From contig NZ_JACJRJ010000047.1 in NCBI RefSeq assembly GCF_014697195.1, forward strand, positions 1 through 49,643: DNA of 49,643 bases. Reading direction: 5' to 3'. Of this stretch, positions 18,517 to 24,673 are shown piece by piece. Position 1 is the first letter of the stretch. Each line of letters begins with the position of its first letter. A model generated the notes under the pieces. The model was not told where the DNA came from. It was given only the letters and a program-made list of their open reading frames with translations, and ran no database searches. Both the position numbers and the translations under genes were made by a program. Origin of the DNA: Cylindrospermum sp. FACHB-282 (GTDB taxonomy: Bacteria; Cyanobacteriota; Cyanobacteriia; Cyanobacteriales; Nostocaceae).

Positions 18517-18726
18517 ATGGAAAATATAATCCATAATGATGTAAACAATCAAGATTATGCATTTCTAGACGGTTTATGCAAGGCAGGATTTGGAAACTTG
18601 CCCTTTTGTGTATTACGTCAATTTAATGTTTTGATAATTAACAGGTTTGGTTATACTCCTTTACCATTAGATGATAGATGGGAAGAAGTGTTAAATCTTG
18701 CTGAGGAGATATTTGTAGGAGATTAA
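18517..18726 (+). CDS. Small protein of unknown function, leader ORF of the methylase
   Basis: 69 residues, family not recognised. The stop codon overlaps the methylase start (TAATG), so the two are translationally coupled. Visible features: a hydrophobic middle (LPFCVLRQFNVLIINRFGY) and an acidic C-terminal helix (DDRWEEVLNLAEEIF). No signal peptide. Its AT-rich codon use matches the methylase. It could be a small partner or regulator of the methylase, or the remains of a longer gene; the coupling is the main argument that it is real. Confidence 0.55.
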   Translation: MENIIHNDVNNQDYAFLDGLCKAGFGNLPFCVLRQFNVLIINRFGYTPLPLDDRWEEVLNLAEEIFVGD

Positions 18727-19613
18727 TGAAGTTTAAACGTATTTATAAATCACCTCTTCGTTACCCCGGAGGAAAACAGAAGGATATTCCCCGTTTATCT
18801 GATTTTTTGCGCCCCTGTAAGGAATTTAGAGATCCTTTTTTAGGAGGAGGCAATATACTTCTTTACGCTGTGGAAAATTCTCTGGCTGAAAAATATTGGG
18901 GAAACGATCTAAATACTTCGGTAATTGATTTTTGGGAAGAAGTAAAATTTGATGTAAATAGACTTGCCGATTTAGCTGAGTCGCTTAGAGAAGAATACAG
19001 AGGTGAACAAGCAAACTGTAAAGCATGGCAAATATTTCGGAAAAAGTTTATATTGAAGCTTAACAAATTACCTACAGATAATCGACTAAACAAAGCAGCT
19101 AAATTTTTTATTTTAAATCGTAGTACATCTGGTGGTTCTACTGAATCTGGAGGAATGACTCAGGCCGCTTATTGTGAGCGTTTTACATTATCTAGTATTA
19201 AGACTCTACGAAGTTTAACAAATATTCTACAAGATGTCCGTCTTACTCATTTAGATTATGAGGAAGTTATTAGAGAGCCTGGTGAAGATATACTTATTTT
19301 TTTAGATCCACCTTATTTGTCAGCTAAATCTTCAGGATTGTACGGAAAGAATGGAGATTTACATAAAACATTCGACCATCGACGTTTAGCAAAAGTATTG
19401 AAAGATTGCAGCCATAAATGTGATTGGTTAATGACAATTGATAATTGTCCAGAAATTAGAGAACTATATGATTGGGCTGATGATAAATTAGAGTGGGAAA
19501 AGGCTTATGGTATGACTAATGTTAGTGGACAAAAATCTAGACGAGGTGCAGAATTACTTATAGCAAATTTTCCTATTAAAAATTACAGTGCTAAGGAACA
19601 CTATTTTATATGA
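18726..19613 (+). CDS. DNA N6-adenine methyltransferase, D12 class (Dam-like)
   Basis: 295 residues. Motif order is that of the alpha group: motif X in SPLRYPGGKQK (residues 9-19), SAM-binding motif I as DPFLGGG (36-42, usually DPFxGxG), then a target-recognition insert, and catalytic motif IV as DPPY (194-197). The protein should methylate adenine; the site is unknown, although Dam relatives use GATC. It is cotranscribed with the 69-codon ORF and converges on herA. Its position beside nurA-herA suggests self-marking in a defence locus, but it could equally be an orphan methylase. Codon use is AT-rich, as in the neighbouring nurA-herA block. Confidence 0.88.
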   Translation: MKFKRIYKSPLRYPGGKQKDIPRLSDFLRPCKEFRDPFLGGGNILLYAVENSLAEKYWGNDLNTSVIDFWEEVKFDVNRLADLAESLREEYRGEQANCKAWQIFRKKFILKLNKLPTDNRLNKAAKFFILNRSTSGGSTESGGMTQAAYCERFTLSSIKTLRSLTNILQDVRLTHLDYEEVIREPGEDILIFLDPPYLSAKSSGLYGKNGDLHKTFDHRRLAKVLKDCSHKCDWLMTIDNCPEIRELYDWADDKLEWEKAYGMTNVSGQKSRRGAELLIANFPIKNYSAKEHYFI

Positions 19614-19634
19614 AATAAGTTTGCTGAGTTATCA

Positions 19635-19699
19635 ATAGATCCAATTCAAAGGAGCATTTTTGTATTCAAGTTTTTTTAAATAACCTGAATTGGATCTAT
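19635..19699. terminator. Perfect 14-bp inverted repeat between the convergent methylase and herA genes
   Basis: ATAGATCCAATTCA at 19635-19648 is inverted at 19686-19699 with a 37-base T-rich loop. Position between two convergent genes suits a bidirectional terminator, although the stem is not followed by a T-run outside it. Both arms contain GATC, a possible site for a Dam-type methylase. Confidence 0.5.
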
Positions 19700-19718
19700 C
19701 TTATCTTTTAGATTGAAT

Positions 19719-21848
19719 CTATTCAGTTATACGAATTACCCAAGTAGTCCCACCTCCTCCTCTTTTCGGCCCTTTTTCGGACTTCCAAAACTTTCCTTCT
19801 TCACCCAAAGTTTCAATGAGTGTTCGTTTTATGCAAGTGTTTATTGTGGACGTATCATCATGTAAGGAATCTGGAAGAAATTCTTTAGTAAAGCCCATTA
19901 GAACTCCCCAAGGTAAACCTTTACCATTAATAACTTTCTGCTTAAATTCACTATGTTGTTGAAGCTTTTGGATGGCGGAATTGATACTGTCTACATAAAA
20001 ATCACCTTTTTCTGGTAATACAGAATTGTCTACTTCTTCCTCTAAATTTTCACCAGTTTCTTCTAAATCTTGAGCATCTACATCAGGTGTATTACGCAGT
20101 TGTCCGTTCAACTCTGCCTTGAGTTCAGTAGCAAAAGTCTTAACAGATTCCTTGTCATATTGGGGATCTAGCGGTTGTTGATATATCCGCTCAAATGAGA
20201 GCGCACGAAAGGAAACGGGATAAGGATTAGCACTCACACTACTCCACATTACTCCTTGACCAGGTAACGGCTCGTTCAAAAGACCACCAAGTAAATCATC
20301 ACTAAAATGGGAATTGGCTCTTTGTAAACTCTTTAAATCAGAAGCAGAAAGTAAGTGGAAAACAAACCAATTATCACCTTGGCTAAGTAATTCGACAGGA
20401 ATACTACCAGGTTGCTGAGTAATCATTACAGCACCTAAATCATATTTACGTCCTTCTTTGAACCAATCCACAAAAGGCCCATCACTTGAGCCAGTTCCTT
20501 TACTTAGTACACTTTGTGCTTCCTCTAAGACTGCAATAGTAGGAATAGTTTTGGCATCTTTTTCAGTAAACTTATCCTGGTTGTGATTAAATATTTCTTG
20601 CAGAATCAAGCTTGACAAAGTTAGTCCTTGTTCTCCACGCATCTGTGAAATATCCACAATACAGAGCTTGCCTTCCTTTAAGCTTTTGAACAAGAAATCC
20701 ATAAGCCGACTGTTAGGATCATGCAAGGTTCTAACAATATAAACTATGTTGCTTAAAGCGGCTCCAGCTTCTGCTTCAGATTCATTGCTTATACTTAGCA
20801 ACCTCTTCACTTGGTTTATGTCTGCGCTATAGCCATCTTTGTACGCCAAATCAACAAGTTTTATCCAATTTTCACGGGATAATCCTCTAAGCTTCCGAAC
20901 GTTTTGTTGTTCCTGCCGCTCTGGTGATAATGCAACACCAATAATACTTGCAGGAGGTAAGCGGCGAATATCGAGCTTAACACCACCTGCAACAAAGGAA
21001 CCATAGAAGGCGCTTGGAGCCTGACGACGAGTGAAAATTACAAGTTTATCTTGTAAATGAGGGACATCAGTAAAACCTGGTCTTCCATTATCATCTGGCC
21101 AGAAATATTCTCCTTCTGGGTCAAAGATTAGAGTTCCAACTGGGACATCTTGATCTCGTTTCTTTTTAGTCGGTGTTGTTTTATATAGTTCGCTGAACAA
21201 CAGCTTGATTAAGTTAGACTTTCCATAGCCTGCTCGTGCAAAAACAAAAGACCTTCGGGAGGCTAGATTATCCACTGGAAAATGGGTAATGATATCTGGA
21301 GATTTAACCTGCATCCACTCTTCAACCTTAAGCCGTGAATCACTACCGGCATAAACAAATTCTCCTAGTGCAAAAAAACCAAGGTCTGCTCCTTGAGTGT
21401 TATGTCCTGCTATTTCTCTAAGAATTTCATTACTTGGAAAAGCGACCTTACTACCAACATGAGGAAGCCGACGGTGGGATGCTACAAACACAAACTTTCC
21501 ATTCGAGTGCCGTATTACTCCGAGAACGCGGATATTAACTCGATATTTTACATATTGTTCACGCAGGTCTTCTGGAATTTCTCGGTCTTCCCCCATCGCG
21601 CGCAAACTGAAATCTTCCCCATGTTCTCTAGTAAGTTTTCCGTCTGAGAAGAAAGATGTAATTCTTCCTAAAACTGCCTCATCTTCACTAGCCAGTTGTA
21701 CCAGAAGAAATTGTCCATGCATAGGAATACTTTGAAAATCATTGCGGTATGGCAATACAATATCTGCATGAAATTCAAGTCCTCCTTCACTGAAGCCCCG
21801 AAAGATACCTGATATATTTTCTTTAGGAAATAATGGTGTTTTATTCAT
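19719..21848 (-). CDS. herA: HerA-like hexameric DNA translocase
   Basis: 709 residues. An N-terminal HAS-barrel-like region (about 1-170) precedes a FtsK/HerA ATPase core. Walker A is FARAGYGKSN (204-211; the first glycine of GxxxxGKS is alanine), LIFDPEGEYFW is the HerA motif after it, Walker B is TIAVLEEAQ (437-445), and QQPGSIP with LLSASDLKSL follows as sensor regions. Residues ~590-640 are acidic and probably disordered; the last ~70 look like a helical add-on. HerA pumps DNA and works with the nuclease NurA. The start overlaps the end of nurA by 8 bases, so the two are coupled. Confidence 0.9.
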   Translation of the reverse strand: MNKTPLFPKENISGIFRGFSEGGLEFHADIVLPYRNDFQSIPMHGQFLLVQLASEDEAVLGRITSFFSDGKLTREHGEDFSLRAMGEDREIPEDLREQYVKYRVNIRVLGVIRHSNGKFVFVASHRRLPHVGSKVAFPSNEILREIAGHNTQGADLGFFALGEFVYAGSDSRLKVEEWMQVKSPDIITHFPVDNLASRRSFVFARAGYGKSNLIKLLFSELYKTTPTKKKRDQDVPVGTLIFDPEGEYFWPDDNGRPGFTDVPHLQDKLVIFTRRQAPSAFYGSFVAGGVKLDIRRLPPASIIGVALSPERQEQQNVRKLRGLSRENWIKLVDLAYKDGYSADINQVKRLLSISNESEAEAGAALSNIVYIVRTLHDPNSRLMDFLFKSLKEGKLCIVDISQMRGEQGLTLSSLILQEIFNHNQDKFTEKDAKTIPTIAVLEEAQSVLSKGTGSSDGPFVDWFKEGRKYDLGAVMITQQPGSIPVELLSQGDNWFVFHLLSASDLKSLQRANSHFSDDLLGGLLNEPLPGQGVMWSSVSANPYPVSFRALSFERIYQQPLDPQYDKESVKTFATELKAELNGQLRNTPDVDAQDLEETGENLEEEVDNSVLPEKGDFYVDSINSAIQKLQQHSEFKQKVINGKGLPWGVLMGFTKEFLPDSLHDDTSTINTCIKRTLIETLGEEGKFWKSEKGPKRGGGGTTWVIRITE

Positions 21849-22965
21849 ATCGCAGCATACTCACATCAGATTGAAGCATAACTCGATCCACAACATCTTG
21901 TTCTTGAGGAATAAATGATTTACGAACAGCCCCGACGATCATATCTTCCATCACTTCCATATCAAAACCCACTAGAGCAGCTTGTTCATGAGCTTTCTGC
22001 AAGCATCTAGGATAAAAGGGAACAGGAAAACCATCATTAGCATCTGCCAATAAATACCCCATAACTTGGGAAGCTTGCTCAAGCTGAGGTAGAAAAATAT
22101 CAATTGGCCAGATTGGGTCATTTATACGACTACCAAATCTCACCATAAACAAACGCCCACCTACAAACTTTTCAGCCTCACTTCCTGTAGCATACTCTTC
22201 CCAAATATAGGCTTTTTTCTGTATATCTGGCAATATTTCTACATAGCAGGGATAACCTTGAGTTAATATTCCTTCTAGTGCAAATGCTAATCTATATCGC
22301 GCAAGTACCTTGCTTTTTTTAGAAAATCCAACTAGATAAACACGCCTTTTAGTACGACGATAAATTTCTTTGATAGCATCATCAATTTTGCTTAAAAGAA
22401 CTGTGAAGAGTTTTTGGGTAAAAATTTTGCTTCGTAGAAGTCCATCACGAACAATTAAAGTATCTGTATTAAAACCTTCCTGTTTAACAAGCATCTCATA
22501 CAAAGCAGCCCATTCTGCCAAATCACGATACACTTCAACCCATGAAGGTTTAGGATTTTCTTCATCAGGCTTAGGTATCATTGGGCTAAGTTCCCAAAGA
22601 GTTCTTACTCCCAAATCTTTCATCATTAGACCTAAAGCTGATTTAGAAGTACCATCTTTGTCTAGATGACTGCTTGACAATTGATCAGTATTAGTCGTGG
22701 GAGAAGCTAAATCTAGTAACAATTCCCTCCCGTAAGAATCTACCACCCTAACCAATTGAAAGAAGTATGGATCAAAATTAACCTTATTGTTTCCACCGTC
22801 AGCGGCAACAAGAGAAATAGATGTAGTGCTTCTAGGGTTAATTCGCCGCACTTCACTTCTCAATGGTCGAATTTCACTGCGTAGTTCTTCTATTACCCGT
22901 TTATCTGTCGTGGATCTTTCTTCAAGCTTCCTCCGTATCTCATTCAAGGTTTCGGGTGTAATCAT
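21841..22965 (-). CDS. nurA: NurA-family nuclease
   Basis: 374 residues. The NurA domain is seen as VAADGGNN (Asp56, first metal ligand), then LIVRDGLLRSK (Asp174) and C-terminal FYPRCLQKAHEQAAL with the usual conserved histidine. Residues 1-40 form a charged helix. NurA is an RNase H-like exonuclease that acts on DNA fed by the HerA ring, in archaeal end-resection and in bacterial anti-phage pairs. It is the first gene of the nurA-herA unit, overlapping herA by 8 bases. Genes of the pair are AT-rich compared with the neighbours. Confidence in the family is good because of gene pairing as well as motifs. Confidence 0.85.
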   Translation of the reverse strand: MITPETLNEIRRKLEERSTTDKRVIEELRSEIRPLRSEVRRINPRSTTSISLVAADGGNNKVNFDPYFFQLVRVVDSYGRELLLDLASPTTNTDQLSSSHLDKDGTSKSALGLMMKDLGVRTLWELSPMIPKPDEENPKPSWVEVYRDLAEWAALYEMLVKQEGFNTDTLIVRDGLLRSKIFTQKLFTVLLSKIDDAIKEIYRRTKRRVYLVGFSKKSKVLARYRLAFALEGILTQGYPCYVEILPDIQKKAYIWEEYATGSEAEKFVGGRLFMVRFGSRINDPIWPIDIFLPQLEQASQVMGYLLADANDGFPVPFYPRCLQKAHEQAALVGFDMEVMEDMIVGAVRKSFIPQEQDVVDRVMLQSDVSMLRYE

Positions 22966-23215: not shown

Positions 23216-24037
23216 CTAAACTTTTTTAGCAACCTGAAAAGCAGAGATGTAGTTTATCTGAATACTTCCCCCGTAGTTTTGTTCTATCTTTTCCCGCAAA
23301 GCTGCAAATAAAGCATCCCTAGTTGGTGTATCTAGCTTTAAATACGGTGTGAGAGTGCTTAAAAGCAGCAAATAATTATCAGCGCTATAGGTGGCTTGAC
23401 AGGGAATTTGCTCAGAATATATATCTTTAAATCTTCCTGATTCAATGGCTGTTTTTCCTAAAGCTTTGACTATCTCTTCTTGGGTTTTTGTATCTTCATA
23501 TCGCGCTAATGAGGGAGCATTAATTTTATAAACCTCATGTAAATCTTGGTATACCTCATAATTAGGTTGAGGTGTCATATTCCACAGCAAAATCAATGAA
23601 CCATTACTTTGTAAAGTATCAGCAGCTTTTGCACAACCAACATCAGGATTTATCCAATGAAAGGAAGTCGCTGCTAAAACTGCGTTAAATCTCTCAGTCT
23701 CTAATTCCCATTCTTCAAATGTGGTTTGCTGAATCTCTACTTTTGGATATGCTGCACAATTTTGTCTGGCAAAATTACAAGCTTCTTTGCTGGGTTCTAG
23801 ACAGAGAATAGAAAAGCCTAATTTGGCAAAGGGTACAGTTGCAATACCAGGGCCACAGCCTAACTCAAGAATGGCGGCTTCAGCAGGAATTTGGGATACT
23901 TCCACAGCACGATTAATGAGTTTTTTTGGATAGCGTGGTCTGAATTTGTTATAGGCTTCTGCTACATTTGAATACCAGTTTTTTCTCTGTTCTAACTCTT
24001 GAGGAAATAAGTTTTTTAGTTGTTCTAATTCTTTCAT
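23216..24037 (-). CDS. Class I SAM-dependent methyltransferase
   Basis: 273 residues. Motif I is ILELGCGPGIA (about residues 57-67), followed by the acidic strand-2 end ILCLEPS and the post-motif FNAVLAATSFHWINP; SFHW is typical of the UbiE/trans-aconitate-methyltransferase-like group. The N-terminal WYSNVAEAYNKFRPRYP also fits that group. The acceptor is unknown. The ATG at 24037 is used. It is separate from nurA-herA by 250 bases and has more usual codon use, so I do not link it to the accessory block. Confidence 0.85.
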   Translation of the reverse strand: MKELEQLKNLFPQELEQRKNWYSNVAEAYNKFRPRYPKKLINRAVEVSQIPAEAAILELGCGPGIATVPFAKLGFSILCLEPSKEACNFARQNCAAYPKVEIQQTTFEEWELETERFNAVLAATSFHWINPDVGCAKAADTLQSNGSLILLWNMTPQPNYEVYQDLHEVYKINAPSLARYEDTKTQEEIVKALGKTAIESGRFKDIYSEQIPCQATYSADNYLLLLSTLTPYLKLDTPTRDALFAALREKIEQNYGGSIQINYISAFQVAKKV

Positions 24038-24112
24038 GATATATTCTCACTGATGGTTGCTTAACTGAGCAATTGGGGTAATCTCTGAGTTAATCCCATT
24101 TTCAGGGTATTG

Positions 24113-24163
24113 AAAAAAAGCGGATCGCCTTTCCGAAGAATTGGAAAAGTGACCGCCTTTTTG
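24113..24163 (-). terminator. Intrinsic terminator of the 24264-24527 gene
   Basis: On the minus strand AAAAAGGCGGTCACTTTTCC pairs with GGAAAGGCGATCCGCTTTTTTT around a short loop, ending in a run of seven T. It lies 100 bases after the small gene's stop codon and before the next minus-strand gene. Confidence 0.7.
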
Positions 24164-24263
24164 TGGGTTGATTTTCAGTGAAAGTAGTAGAGCTTCTGAT
24201 AGGTAGCTTTCAGATGCAAATATTGCCCAATAAAGTTACCCAGTCAAACTTTTCGGACATTGC

Positions 24264-24527
24264 TTATTGCTTTCCTTCCCCAGCATCAATTAATTTAGCT
24301 AGGGATTTAGGATCGAAGTAATGCAATGATTCAGCTAACTGCAAAAATTTGTTATATTCCTTTTTGGTGTATTCAGTTGGCTCATAGCCTAAAACTTTAC
24401 AGAACTTAAGATAATCAGACCTCCAGCGGAAATCATTGATGGCGGTACTAAACCGCTTTGCTATTATCTTAGCTTCAGGCGAGGTAGTGGGTCTATATAA
24501 GTCGTAGCTCTCATCTATGTCGGTCAT
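24264..24527 (-). CDS. Conserved-looking small protein of unknown function
   Basis: 87 residues from the ATG at 24527 (MTDIDESYDLYRP), which has AGGGTG six bases upstream; a GTG at 24536 would add three residues. Soluble, mostly helical, with aromatic-rich segments (DFRWRSDYLKFCKVLGYEP and FLQLAESLHYFDP). No family recognised. A terminator follows it, which supports a real transcript. Its start is divergent from the GTPase gene. Confidence 0.55.
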   Translation of the reverse strand: MTDIDESYDLYRPTTSPEAKIIAKRFSTAINDFRWRSDYLKFCKVLGYEPTEYTKKEYNKFLQLAESLHYFDPKSLAKLIDAGEGKQ

Positions 24528-24673
24528 GCTGTTCACCCTGTTTGCTTAATCGTGGCTTAGAGATGAGGTGTAATACTGGGCAGTGCAATCACCTACCTAT
24601 AAACCAAATAAAGTATATTCACTTAATATATTACAACATCATAGTACTGAGTGCTAACAATTATCGTAACTTC

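What the first reader, a model, noticed from the sequence alone, without database searches (positions are those of the whole stretch)
18517..22965. NurA-HerA pair with a D12 adenine methylase and a coupled small ORF: candidate defence module
Seen: nurA and herA overlap by 8 bases; a Dam-type methylase (DPPY, DPFLGGG) with a TAATG-coupled 69-residue protein converges on them; the whole block is AT-rich between core genes. Known: HerA-NurA pairs occur as bacterial anti-phage systems and in archaeal end resection. Inferred: the methylase could mark self DNA while NurA-HerA degrades unmarked DNA, a restriction-like arrangement that I cannot match to a named system.
Basis: partly seen in the sequence, partly recalled or inferred. 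Interest (0 to 1): 0.8.

Follow-up and report, generated by a model that had tools for sequence, protein, structure and literature searches.

The report
HerA-NurA nuclease with swappable DNA methylases
A travelling gene set in a cyanobacterium pairs a DNA-marking enzyme with a motor-driven DNA-cutting pair, and similar pairings with other marking enzymes in distant microbes suggest an unnamed kind of self-versus-foreign DNA defence.

Summary
The methylase is not a Dam-type adenine enzyme: its nearest solved relative is M.CbeI, which makes N4-methylcytosine in GGCC. NurA of this lineage occurs in 3 of 217 family genomes, each time with HerA and this methylase, once at a different locus. The four genes are about half as diverged as the neighbouring tpiA, so the set moves horizontally as a unit. 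In G714, at the same site, HerA-NurA is reduced to a 35-bp scar while the methylase stays open. The 69-aa protein's family lies directly upstream of this methylase clade in 9 of 10 places. A second HerA-NurA lineage sits by DNA methylases of three architectures in 12 of 17 loci (11 of 16 without G681, found through its sORF), reaching Deferribacterota and a haloarchaeon. Best reading: an ATP-dependent restriction-modification system with HerA-NurA as restriction engine and a replaceable methylase; nearest named relative TdpAB. No activity was tested. New variant of a known kind.

The parts
18517..18726 (+). 69-aa sORF; member of a small family (core F..GF..L..F...P.P....WEE....A) found directly upstream of this methylase clade
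18726..19613 (+). D12/alpha-class DNA methyltransferase; nearest solved relative M.CbeI (N4-cytosine); DPPY at 194-197
19635..19699 (.). 14-nt perfect inverted repeat with a 37-nt spacer between the convergent genes; a similar repeat lies in the same interval of the two other modules (possible bidirectional terminator)
19719..21848 (-). HerA-type DUF87 ATPase; GKS at 209-211, LEEAQ at 441-445; nearest solved structure TdpA
21841..22965 (-). NurA-like nuclease; D56 (AADGG), D174 (VRDG), GFSKKSK, YPRCLQKAH

Best explanation
The module is an ATP-dependent restriction-modification system. Shown by sequence: an M.CbeI-related methyltransferase, a HerA-type ATPase and a NurA-like protein that occur, move and decay as a restriction-modification unit would. 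Inferred: the methylase marks the host's own sites (probably N4-methylcytosine). HerA, a ring motor, feeds DNA into NurA, which cuts or degrades DNA that lacks the mark. How the mark is read is not shown. Either the methylase, perhaps with the sORF protein, is the site-reading subunit (the library scans of HerA and NurA gave no sequence-recognition domain), or methylated sites block the HerA-NurA complex directly, as phosphorothioate is thought to do for TdpAB (recalled). The sORF is most likely a methylase-side accessory (regulator or adaptor), and dispensable.
For: (1) Unit: window, A. silvestris (same site) and G302 (a different locus, between ORFs that look by eye like a glycogen-debranching enzyme and uvrA) share methylase-> <-herA <-nurA. 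(2) Co-transfer: window-A. silvestris dS is 0.40 methylase, 0.49 herA, 0.45 nurA, 0.42 sORF against 0.96 for tpiA. (3) Rare and accessory: NurA in 3 of 217 family genomes and 2 of 291 order genomes, own genome included; in 11 of 30 tpiA loci the GTPase lies within 0.55 kb of tpiA with no module, 2 hold the module, 17 are unclear. (4) Asymmetric loss: G714 at the same site keeps a 293-aa methylase (dN/dS 0.18-0.22), a 23-codon sORF stump and a 35-bp nurA scar at 94% identity; in the second lineage G198 keeps a 343-aa methylase with only a NurA fragment and no HerA in 12 kb. (5) Recurrence: 12 of 17 loci of a second HerA-NurA lineage have a DNA methylase next door, of three architectures, in cyanobacteria, Deferribacterota and a haloarchaeon; 11 of 16 without G681, which was found through its sORF. 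(6) In G681 the same sORF-methylase clade sits beside that other HerA-NurA lineage. (7) Relatives of the methylase are type II modification enzymes: M.CbeI is cognate to a GGCC endonuclease, and Nostoc plasmid genes adjoin HaeIII-family endonucleases. (8) Both HerA lineages hit TdpA best in the PDB.
Against: No methylation, cleavage or phage data. Only three full modules of this lineage are known. 5 of 17 loci of the other lineage have no methylase next door; three of those are plasmids with an HTH gene instead, so HerA-NurA can persist without a linked methylase. The host already has an orphan methylase of the same broad family (C58), so the mark would be redundant unless the specificity differs. 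The NurA call is just below Pfam's threshold in all three members (19.5-20.3 of 21 bits); profile comparisons with other NurAs and TdpB are weak, and the second lineage's NurA profile finds no PDB chain at all. PADLOC gives no hit for this NurA. The first glycine of HerA's Walker A is alanine in all three members (ARAGYGKS).
Confidence: 0.65

Rival explanations
1. Co-located but independent parts: HerA-NurA is a stand-alone nuclease (defence or plasmid-type) and the methylase is an orphan or anti-restriction gene that happens to travel in the same accessory cassette.
For: Methylase without HerA-NurA in G714 and on the 11-kb G238 contig; HTH-HerA-NurA without a linked methylase on three cyanobacterial plasmids and HerA-NurA without one in G169.
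Against: Same three-gene order at two loci; NurA of this lineage never found without it (3 of 3); recurrent pairing with three methylase architectures in 12 of 17 loci and re-pairing in G681. The host genome has 3 matches to this methylase in 6.1 Mb, so by that rate chance adjacency is of order 1 in 200 per 10 kb.
Confidence: 0.18
2. DNA end-resection repair pair as in archaea and Deinococcus, with a bystander methylase.
For: HerA-NurA is known for resection (PMC9960219, passages); the Pontibacillus plasmid pair is followed by genes annotated metallophosphoesterase and SMC family ATPase, and the Priestia HerA has similar-looking neighbours by eye.
Against: 3 of 217 genomes, horizontal spread, deletion in G714; no Mre11/Rad50-like ORF seen by eye beside the three modules (no profile search made).
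Confidence: 0.07
3. Compact RM-plus-abortive system in which the methylase (or sORF) restrains HerA-NurA and phage interference releases it, as suggested for PD-lambda-5.
For: PADLOC PD-Lambda-5_B matches the methylase (8e-30); of the sORF-linked long methylases the one scanned against PADLOC matches PD-Lambda-5_B (1.8e-32) and weakly PD-Lambda-5_A (0.0084); PMC9519451 says PD-lambda-5 appears to be a compacted RM+Abi system (passages).
Against: The methylase matches MTase_II far better (6e-80); PD-Lambda-5_A hit none of the seven window proteins scanned.
Confidence: 0.09

Closest known systems
TdpA-TdpB (Thermus phosphorothioate-linked system; PDB 8wet/8wfd/8y1k)
   Same: HerA-type ATPase plus a separate partner of nearly the same length (TdpB 375 aa, NurA here 374); TdpA is the best PDB hit of both HerA lineages and TdpB the best, though weak (E 0.49), hit of this NurA. 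Self-marking restriction logic is recalled; searches found no held Tdp paper.
   Different: The linked marker here is a DNA methyltransferase, not a phosphorothioation enzyme (TdpC, recalled; not searched for by sequence); a small ORF is added; the second lineage's NurA does not hit TdpB.
M.CbeI/CbeI and HaeIII-family type II systems
   Same: Methylase family (M.CbeI E 1.4e-57); HaeIII-family endonuclease beside relatives in Nostoc plasmids.
   Different: The site-specific endonuclease is replaced by HerA-NurA; the methylase lies in a separate clade (100/100).
HerA-Sir2 (Nezha) and HerA-DUF4297
   Same: HerA ring plus an effector enzyme in defence (PMC12948488 table, passages).
   Different: NurA-like effector and a modification gene; 50.8 of 800 bits against the NCBIfam antiphage HerA model.
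DndFGH, HerA/FtsK capture systems, BREX-related capture
   Same: HerA/FtsK motor joined to modification or restriction genes (PMC10853773, PMC12839542, passages); PADLOC's DndH model hits this HerA weakly (1.6e-4).
   Different: The word NurA occurs 0 times in either main text; the seven window proteins scanned hit no other Dnd or BREX model at E 0.01.
MADS (PADLOC mad1-8)
   Same: PADLOC mad8 hits the HerA (8.4e-10) and mad2 the neighbouring SAM-methyltransferase at 23216-24037 (1.3e-14).
   Different: HerA models score better (8.5e-17); the SAM-methyltransferase is not found at the A. silvestris or G302 loci; no other mad model hit the seven proteins scanned. My paper search for MADS returned nothing relevant.

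Membership tests
Restriction-modification (general) | Modification methylase and restriction nuclease linked | tested here: met
   3 of 3 modules; nuclease by homology only
Restriction-modification (general) | Modification gene can survive loss of the restriction arm, not the reverse | tested here: inconclusive
   G714 and G198 fit; in the second lineage 5 of 17 loci have HerA-NurA and no linked methylase
Restriction-modification (general) | Cleaves unmodified, spares modified DNA | not testable with these tools
   needs biochemistry
Type II RM | Site-specific endonuclease without ATP motor | tested here: not met
   partner genes are a HerA ATPase and a NurA-like protein
Dam-family adenine methylase | NCBIfam TIGR00571 cut-off | tested here: not met
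   83.3 of 114.85 bits
M.CbeI-type N4-cytosine methylase | Sequence clade and product base | tested here: inconclusive
   nearest solved relative (1.4e-57 against 1.2e-4 for DpnM) but a separate clade; product base not testable
NurA | PF09376 gathering score | tested here: inconclusive
   20.0, 19.5 and 20.3 of 21 bits in the three members; D56 and D174 invariant (catalytic role recalled)
HerA | DUF87 domain with Walker A/B | tested here: met
   69 of 23.2 bits; GKS and LEEAQ invariant, though the first Walker A glycine is alanine
NCBIfam antiphage HerA | NF042943 cut-off | tested here: not met
   50.8 of 800 bits
Tdp | TdpA/TdpB homology | tested here: inconclusive
   HerA E 1.2e-17, NurA E 0.49
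Tdp | Linked phosphorothioation enzyme TdpC | not tested
   no reference TdpC at hand; the neighbours scanned by Pfam are a SAM-methyltransferase and a GTPase
MADS | Set of mad genes | tested here: not met
   only mad8-like and mad2-like hits among seven proteins scanned

The most novel reading that the evidence does not exclude
HerA-NurA is the restriction engine of a whole class of methylation-based, ATP-driven restriction-modification systems. The methylase arm is interchangeable: alpha/D12 M.CbeI-like with a small adaptor, beta-type N6_N4 (SPPF...DPFAG), and permuted N6_N4 (DPFAG...SPPY). The class runs from cyanobacteria to Deferribacterota and haloarchaea and is the methyl counterpart of the phosphorothioate Tdp system.
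Probability: 0.5. Interest if true: 0.8.

Novelty: new variant of a known kind. Interest (0 to 1): 0.64.

Why it matters
The role of bacterial NurA-HerA pairs is called uncertain in the literature (PMC9960219, passages). If one branch is a methyl-gated restriction engine, it gives those pairs a testable role, adds an ATP-dependent restriction class built on a HerA ring motor, and shows the same engine working with different self-marks. It would also be a barrier to transformation in the strains that carry it.

Tried and rejected
Rejected: Dam/GATC reading. Rejected: sORF hit in Shinella (inside an ORF that looks like glgB by eye). Dropped from the sORF count as chance: G269 and G568 (stops inside); also G299. 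Weak NurA hits in G019 and G604 (E 0.006-0.007) dropped. MADS considered and not met.

Led nowhere: the AlphaFold model of NurA was unusable (mean pLDDT 38.8), so no fold search was made. The sORF model was accepted and still unfinished. HerA profile in viral contigs found no relative; no phage record matched this HerA. The 297-aa ORF upstream of the sORF in G727/G732 and the 187-aa ORF in G681 could not be identified. Promoter scan near chance (20 found, 17.7 expected). The dN/dS script stopped with an error; the window-A. silvestris GTPase value came from a wrong frame and is not used. In some searches the P0002 row carried one gap character, so the DPPY position is taken. HerA hits L086-L088 have no NurA by either profile and are not in the count of 17. 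L132 is the same plasmid as L084 (same record length and position) and is counted once. G681 entered through its sORF, so the unbiased methylase count is 11 of 16. The methylase tree carries a long-branch warning that involves the window clade. No DmtB or M.Ssp6803II sequence was at hand; 'DmtB-like' for the widespread relatives is inference from the literature.

Full report
1. What is there. One search gives the four ORFs at the stated places: 69 aa (18517-18726, +), methylase (18726-19613, +), HerA (19719-21848, -) and NurA (21841-22965, -), with the TAATG coupling and the 8-base overlap as described. Pfam: MethyltransfD12 9.6e-27; DUF87/HerA 8.4e-19; NurA 5.4e-4, 20.0 of 21 bits. The two other members score 19.5 and 20.3. 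NurA-type motifs are invariant in the three members: D56 in AADGG, D174 in VRDG, GFSKKSK and YPRCLQKAH (the motif assignment is recalled). Alignments to two annotated NurAs and to the second NurA lineage each fall on one or two of these motifs but have very low probability. PADLOC names the methylase MTase_II (6e-80) and the HerA, has nothing for NurA or the sORF, and also lists mad8 (8.4e-10) and DndH (1.6e-4) for the HerA. Names for tpiA, folP, stomatin and other flanking genes are mine by eye; only the GTPase and SAM-methyltransferase were scanned.

2. The methylase is not Dam-type. It fails the NCBIfam Dam cut-off (83.3 of 114.85 bits). Its nearest solved relative is 7M6B (1.4e-57; DpnM 1.2e-4; profile). 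7M6B is M.CbeI, an alpha-class N4-cytosine methyltransferase (PMC8616854, passages) that acts on GGCC, is cognate to the HaeIII isoschizomer CbeI and has a homologue in Anabaena DmtB (PMC3425538, passages). M.Ssp6803II of Synechocystis makes GGm4CC and has homologues in almost all cyanobacterial clades (PMC6560206, passages). The widespread 39-47% relatives found are probably those enzymes, but no DmtB or M.Ssp6803II sequence was at hand to test it. The host has one such orphan beside a trpD-like gene (G000 C58). Plasmid relatives in Nostoc overlap or adjoin a HaeIII-family endonuclease (three rows; one opened). In a 39-row tree the window methylase, its orthologues, the sORF-linked methylases and G238 form one clade of 11 (100/100) apart from the widespread relatives, the HaeIII-linked one and M.CbeI (midpoint root, long-branch warning). 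Target base and site are therefore inferred, and the site may differ from GGCC.

3. The module is a rare, mobile unit. NurA of this type: 3 of 217 family genomes (G000, G017, G302), 2 of 291 order genomes, 2 of 386 phylum genomes after dropping two weak hits. HerA at full length: own genome and G017 among the 60 genomes; in G302 it is next to NurA. There the four genes sit at the same site, between tpiA/folP and the DUF697 GTPase. In G302 methylase, herA and nurA have the same arrangement at another locus, without the sORF. Of 30 tpiA loci examined, 11 have the GTPase within 0.55 kb of tpiA and no module, 2 have the module, 17 are unclear because the GTPase is not close by within the 1.5 kb held. 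Window-A. silvestris dS is 0.40-0.49 for the four module genes and 0.96 for tpiA: later common ancestry than the flanking gene, similar for all four.

4. Loss of the restriction arm. G714 has the same site with stomatin, folP and tpiA on one side and the GTPase on the other. Between them are the last 23 codons of the sORF, an open 293-aa methylase (86% identical) and no HerA-NurA, except a 35-bp stretch 94% identical to the 5' part of A. silvestris nurA. The scar has E 2e-11 in a direct test; 1 of 500 base shuffles gave any hit at E 1e-3. No NurA of this type is elsewhere in G714 (the second type was not sought there). The methylase is still constrained (dN/dS 0.18-0.22). This is the direction of decay expected of a restriction-modification pair, but it is one event in this lineage.

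5. The small ORF. A profile of three members finds 12 of 217 family genomes. Two with stops inside were dropped. Of the other 10, nine have it (G714 as a remnant) directly upstream of a methylase of the clade above; the tenth, on the Nostoc HK-01 plasmid, lies beside a C5 methylase and a Cfr10I-type endonuclease. In five genomes (G615, G673, G691, G727, G732) that methylase ORF is about 580 aa long; the two scanned (G727, G732) carry a ParB_N domain after the methylase. G727 and G732 also have a 297-aa ORF upstream that no library names. Invariant residues are few, with a P-P...WEE...A core (eight members). dN/dS 0.39 between the two full copies. The association with modification genes is clear; its action is unknown.

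6. The pairing recurs. Distant HerA hits led to a second HerA-NurA lineage (A6, A7). Pfam recognises its NurA in G021 (3.4e-13) and in the Tolypothrix plasmid (4e-5), but not in L081, L082, L131 or L134 and only faintly in L130 (0.04); those are called NurA by profile similarity and, for L129, L130 and L132, by the record's annotation. Distinct loci examined: 17 (L141/L073, L080-L085, L128-L131, L133-L138). A DNA methylase gene stands in or next to the cluster in 12: beta order SPPF...DPFAG in L081, L082, L083, L133, L138 and, broken, L137; permuted order DPFAG...SPPY in L080, L135, L136, and of that family in Halorarius L131 and Deferribacter L130; D12 clade with sORF in G681. None next door in 5: L084, L085, L128, L129, L134. 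G681 was found through its sORF, so the unbiased count is 11 of 16. Three loci are visibly decayed (L085, L137, L138); without them 10 of 14, and 9 of 13 if L130, whose HerA is split by an insertion element, is dropped too. G198 (L138) repeats the G714 pattern: methylase open, no HerA in the 12 kb, NurA a fragment. In G681, HTH-HerA-NurA is divergent from sORF-methylase; its NurA is sister (37% identity) to the haloarchaeal one, whose methylase is of the permuted type. So the methylase arm seems to be exchanged both within and between HerA-NurA lineages. Of three genomes with no methylase next door that I searched, G005 and G020 hold a beta-type methylase elsewhere, G169 none. HerA(-NurA) loci on Pontibacillus, Priestia and Methanocaldococcus plasmids have no match to my three methylase profiles nearby.

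7. Mechanism. Shown: gene content, co-transfer, asymmetric loss, recurrence. Inferred: the methylase marks self; HerA translocates; NurA cuts unmarked DNA. Not known: where recognition lies. As scans of HerA and NurA gave no target-recognition domain, I favour the methylase (with the sORF protein where present) as the site reader, or direct blocking by the mark as recalled for TdpAB. The conserved inverted repeat between the convergent genes may be a shared terminator.

8. Known systems. Best PDB relatives by sequence: TdpA (both HerA lineages) and, weakly, TdpB for this NurA; the second NurA lineage finds no PDB chain. The held library has no Tdp paper that my searches found, so Tdp biology here is recalled. 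Searches for HerA, NurA and methylases or restriction in defence (listings; passages read in PMC12839542, PMC10853773, PMC12948488, PMC9960219 and PMC9519451) showed me no description of a HerA-NurA-methylase system; this covers open-licence papers only, and most listed papers were not opened.

9. Verdict. I rate it a new variant of a known kind: HerA-nuclease restriction of the Tdp sort, with methylation as the mark.

Noticed in passing
L077 2678-5473, L078 2764-5550: Five Nostocaceae genomes (G615, G673, G691, G727, G732) carry the sORF plus a roughly 580-aa methylase (ParB_N domain in the two scanned); G727 and G732 also have an unnamed 297-aa ORF upstream: a second candidate restriction-modification or PD-lambda-5-like system.
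   Followed up: partly
window 19635-19699: 14-nt perfect inverted repeat with a 37-nt spacer between the convergent genes; similar repeat in the same interval of A. silvestris and G302.
   Followed up: partly
L130 1126-4924: In the Deferribacter plasmid the HerA gene of a methylase-HerA-NurA cluster is split by an IS200/IS605 TnpA-TnpB element.
   Followed up: no
L128 2655-6335, L129 2658-6335, L132 2659-6335: Cyanobacterial plasmids with HTH-HerA-NurA and no methylase next door: perhaps a regulator-controlled version of the same engine.
   Followed up: partly
L056 3826-6201: Nostoc HK-01 plasmid: Cfr10I-type endonuclease, C5 methylase and the sORF homologue in a row.
   Followed up: partly
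window 23216-24536: AT-rich SAM-methyltransferase (PADLOC mad2 1.3e-14) and a 90-aa ORF between nurA and the GTPase, not found at the A. silvestris site; accessory content of the same spot.
   Followed up: no
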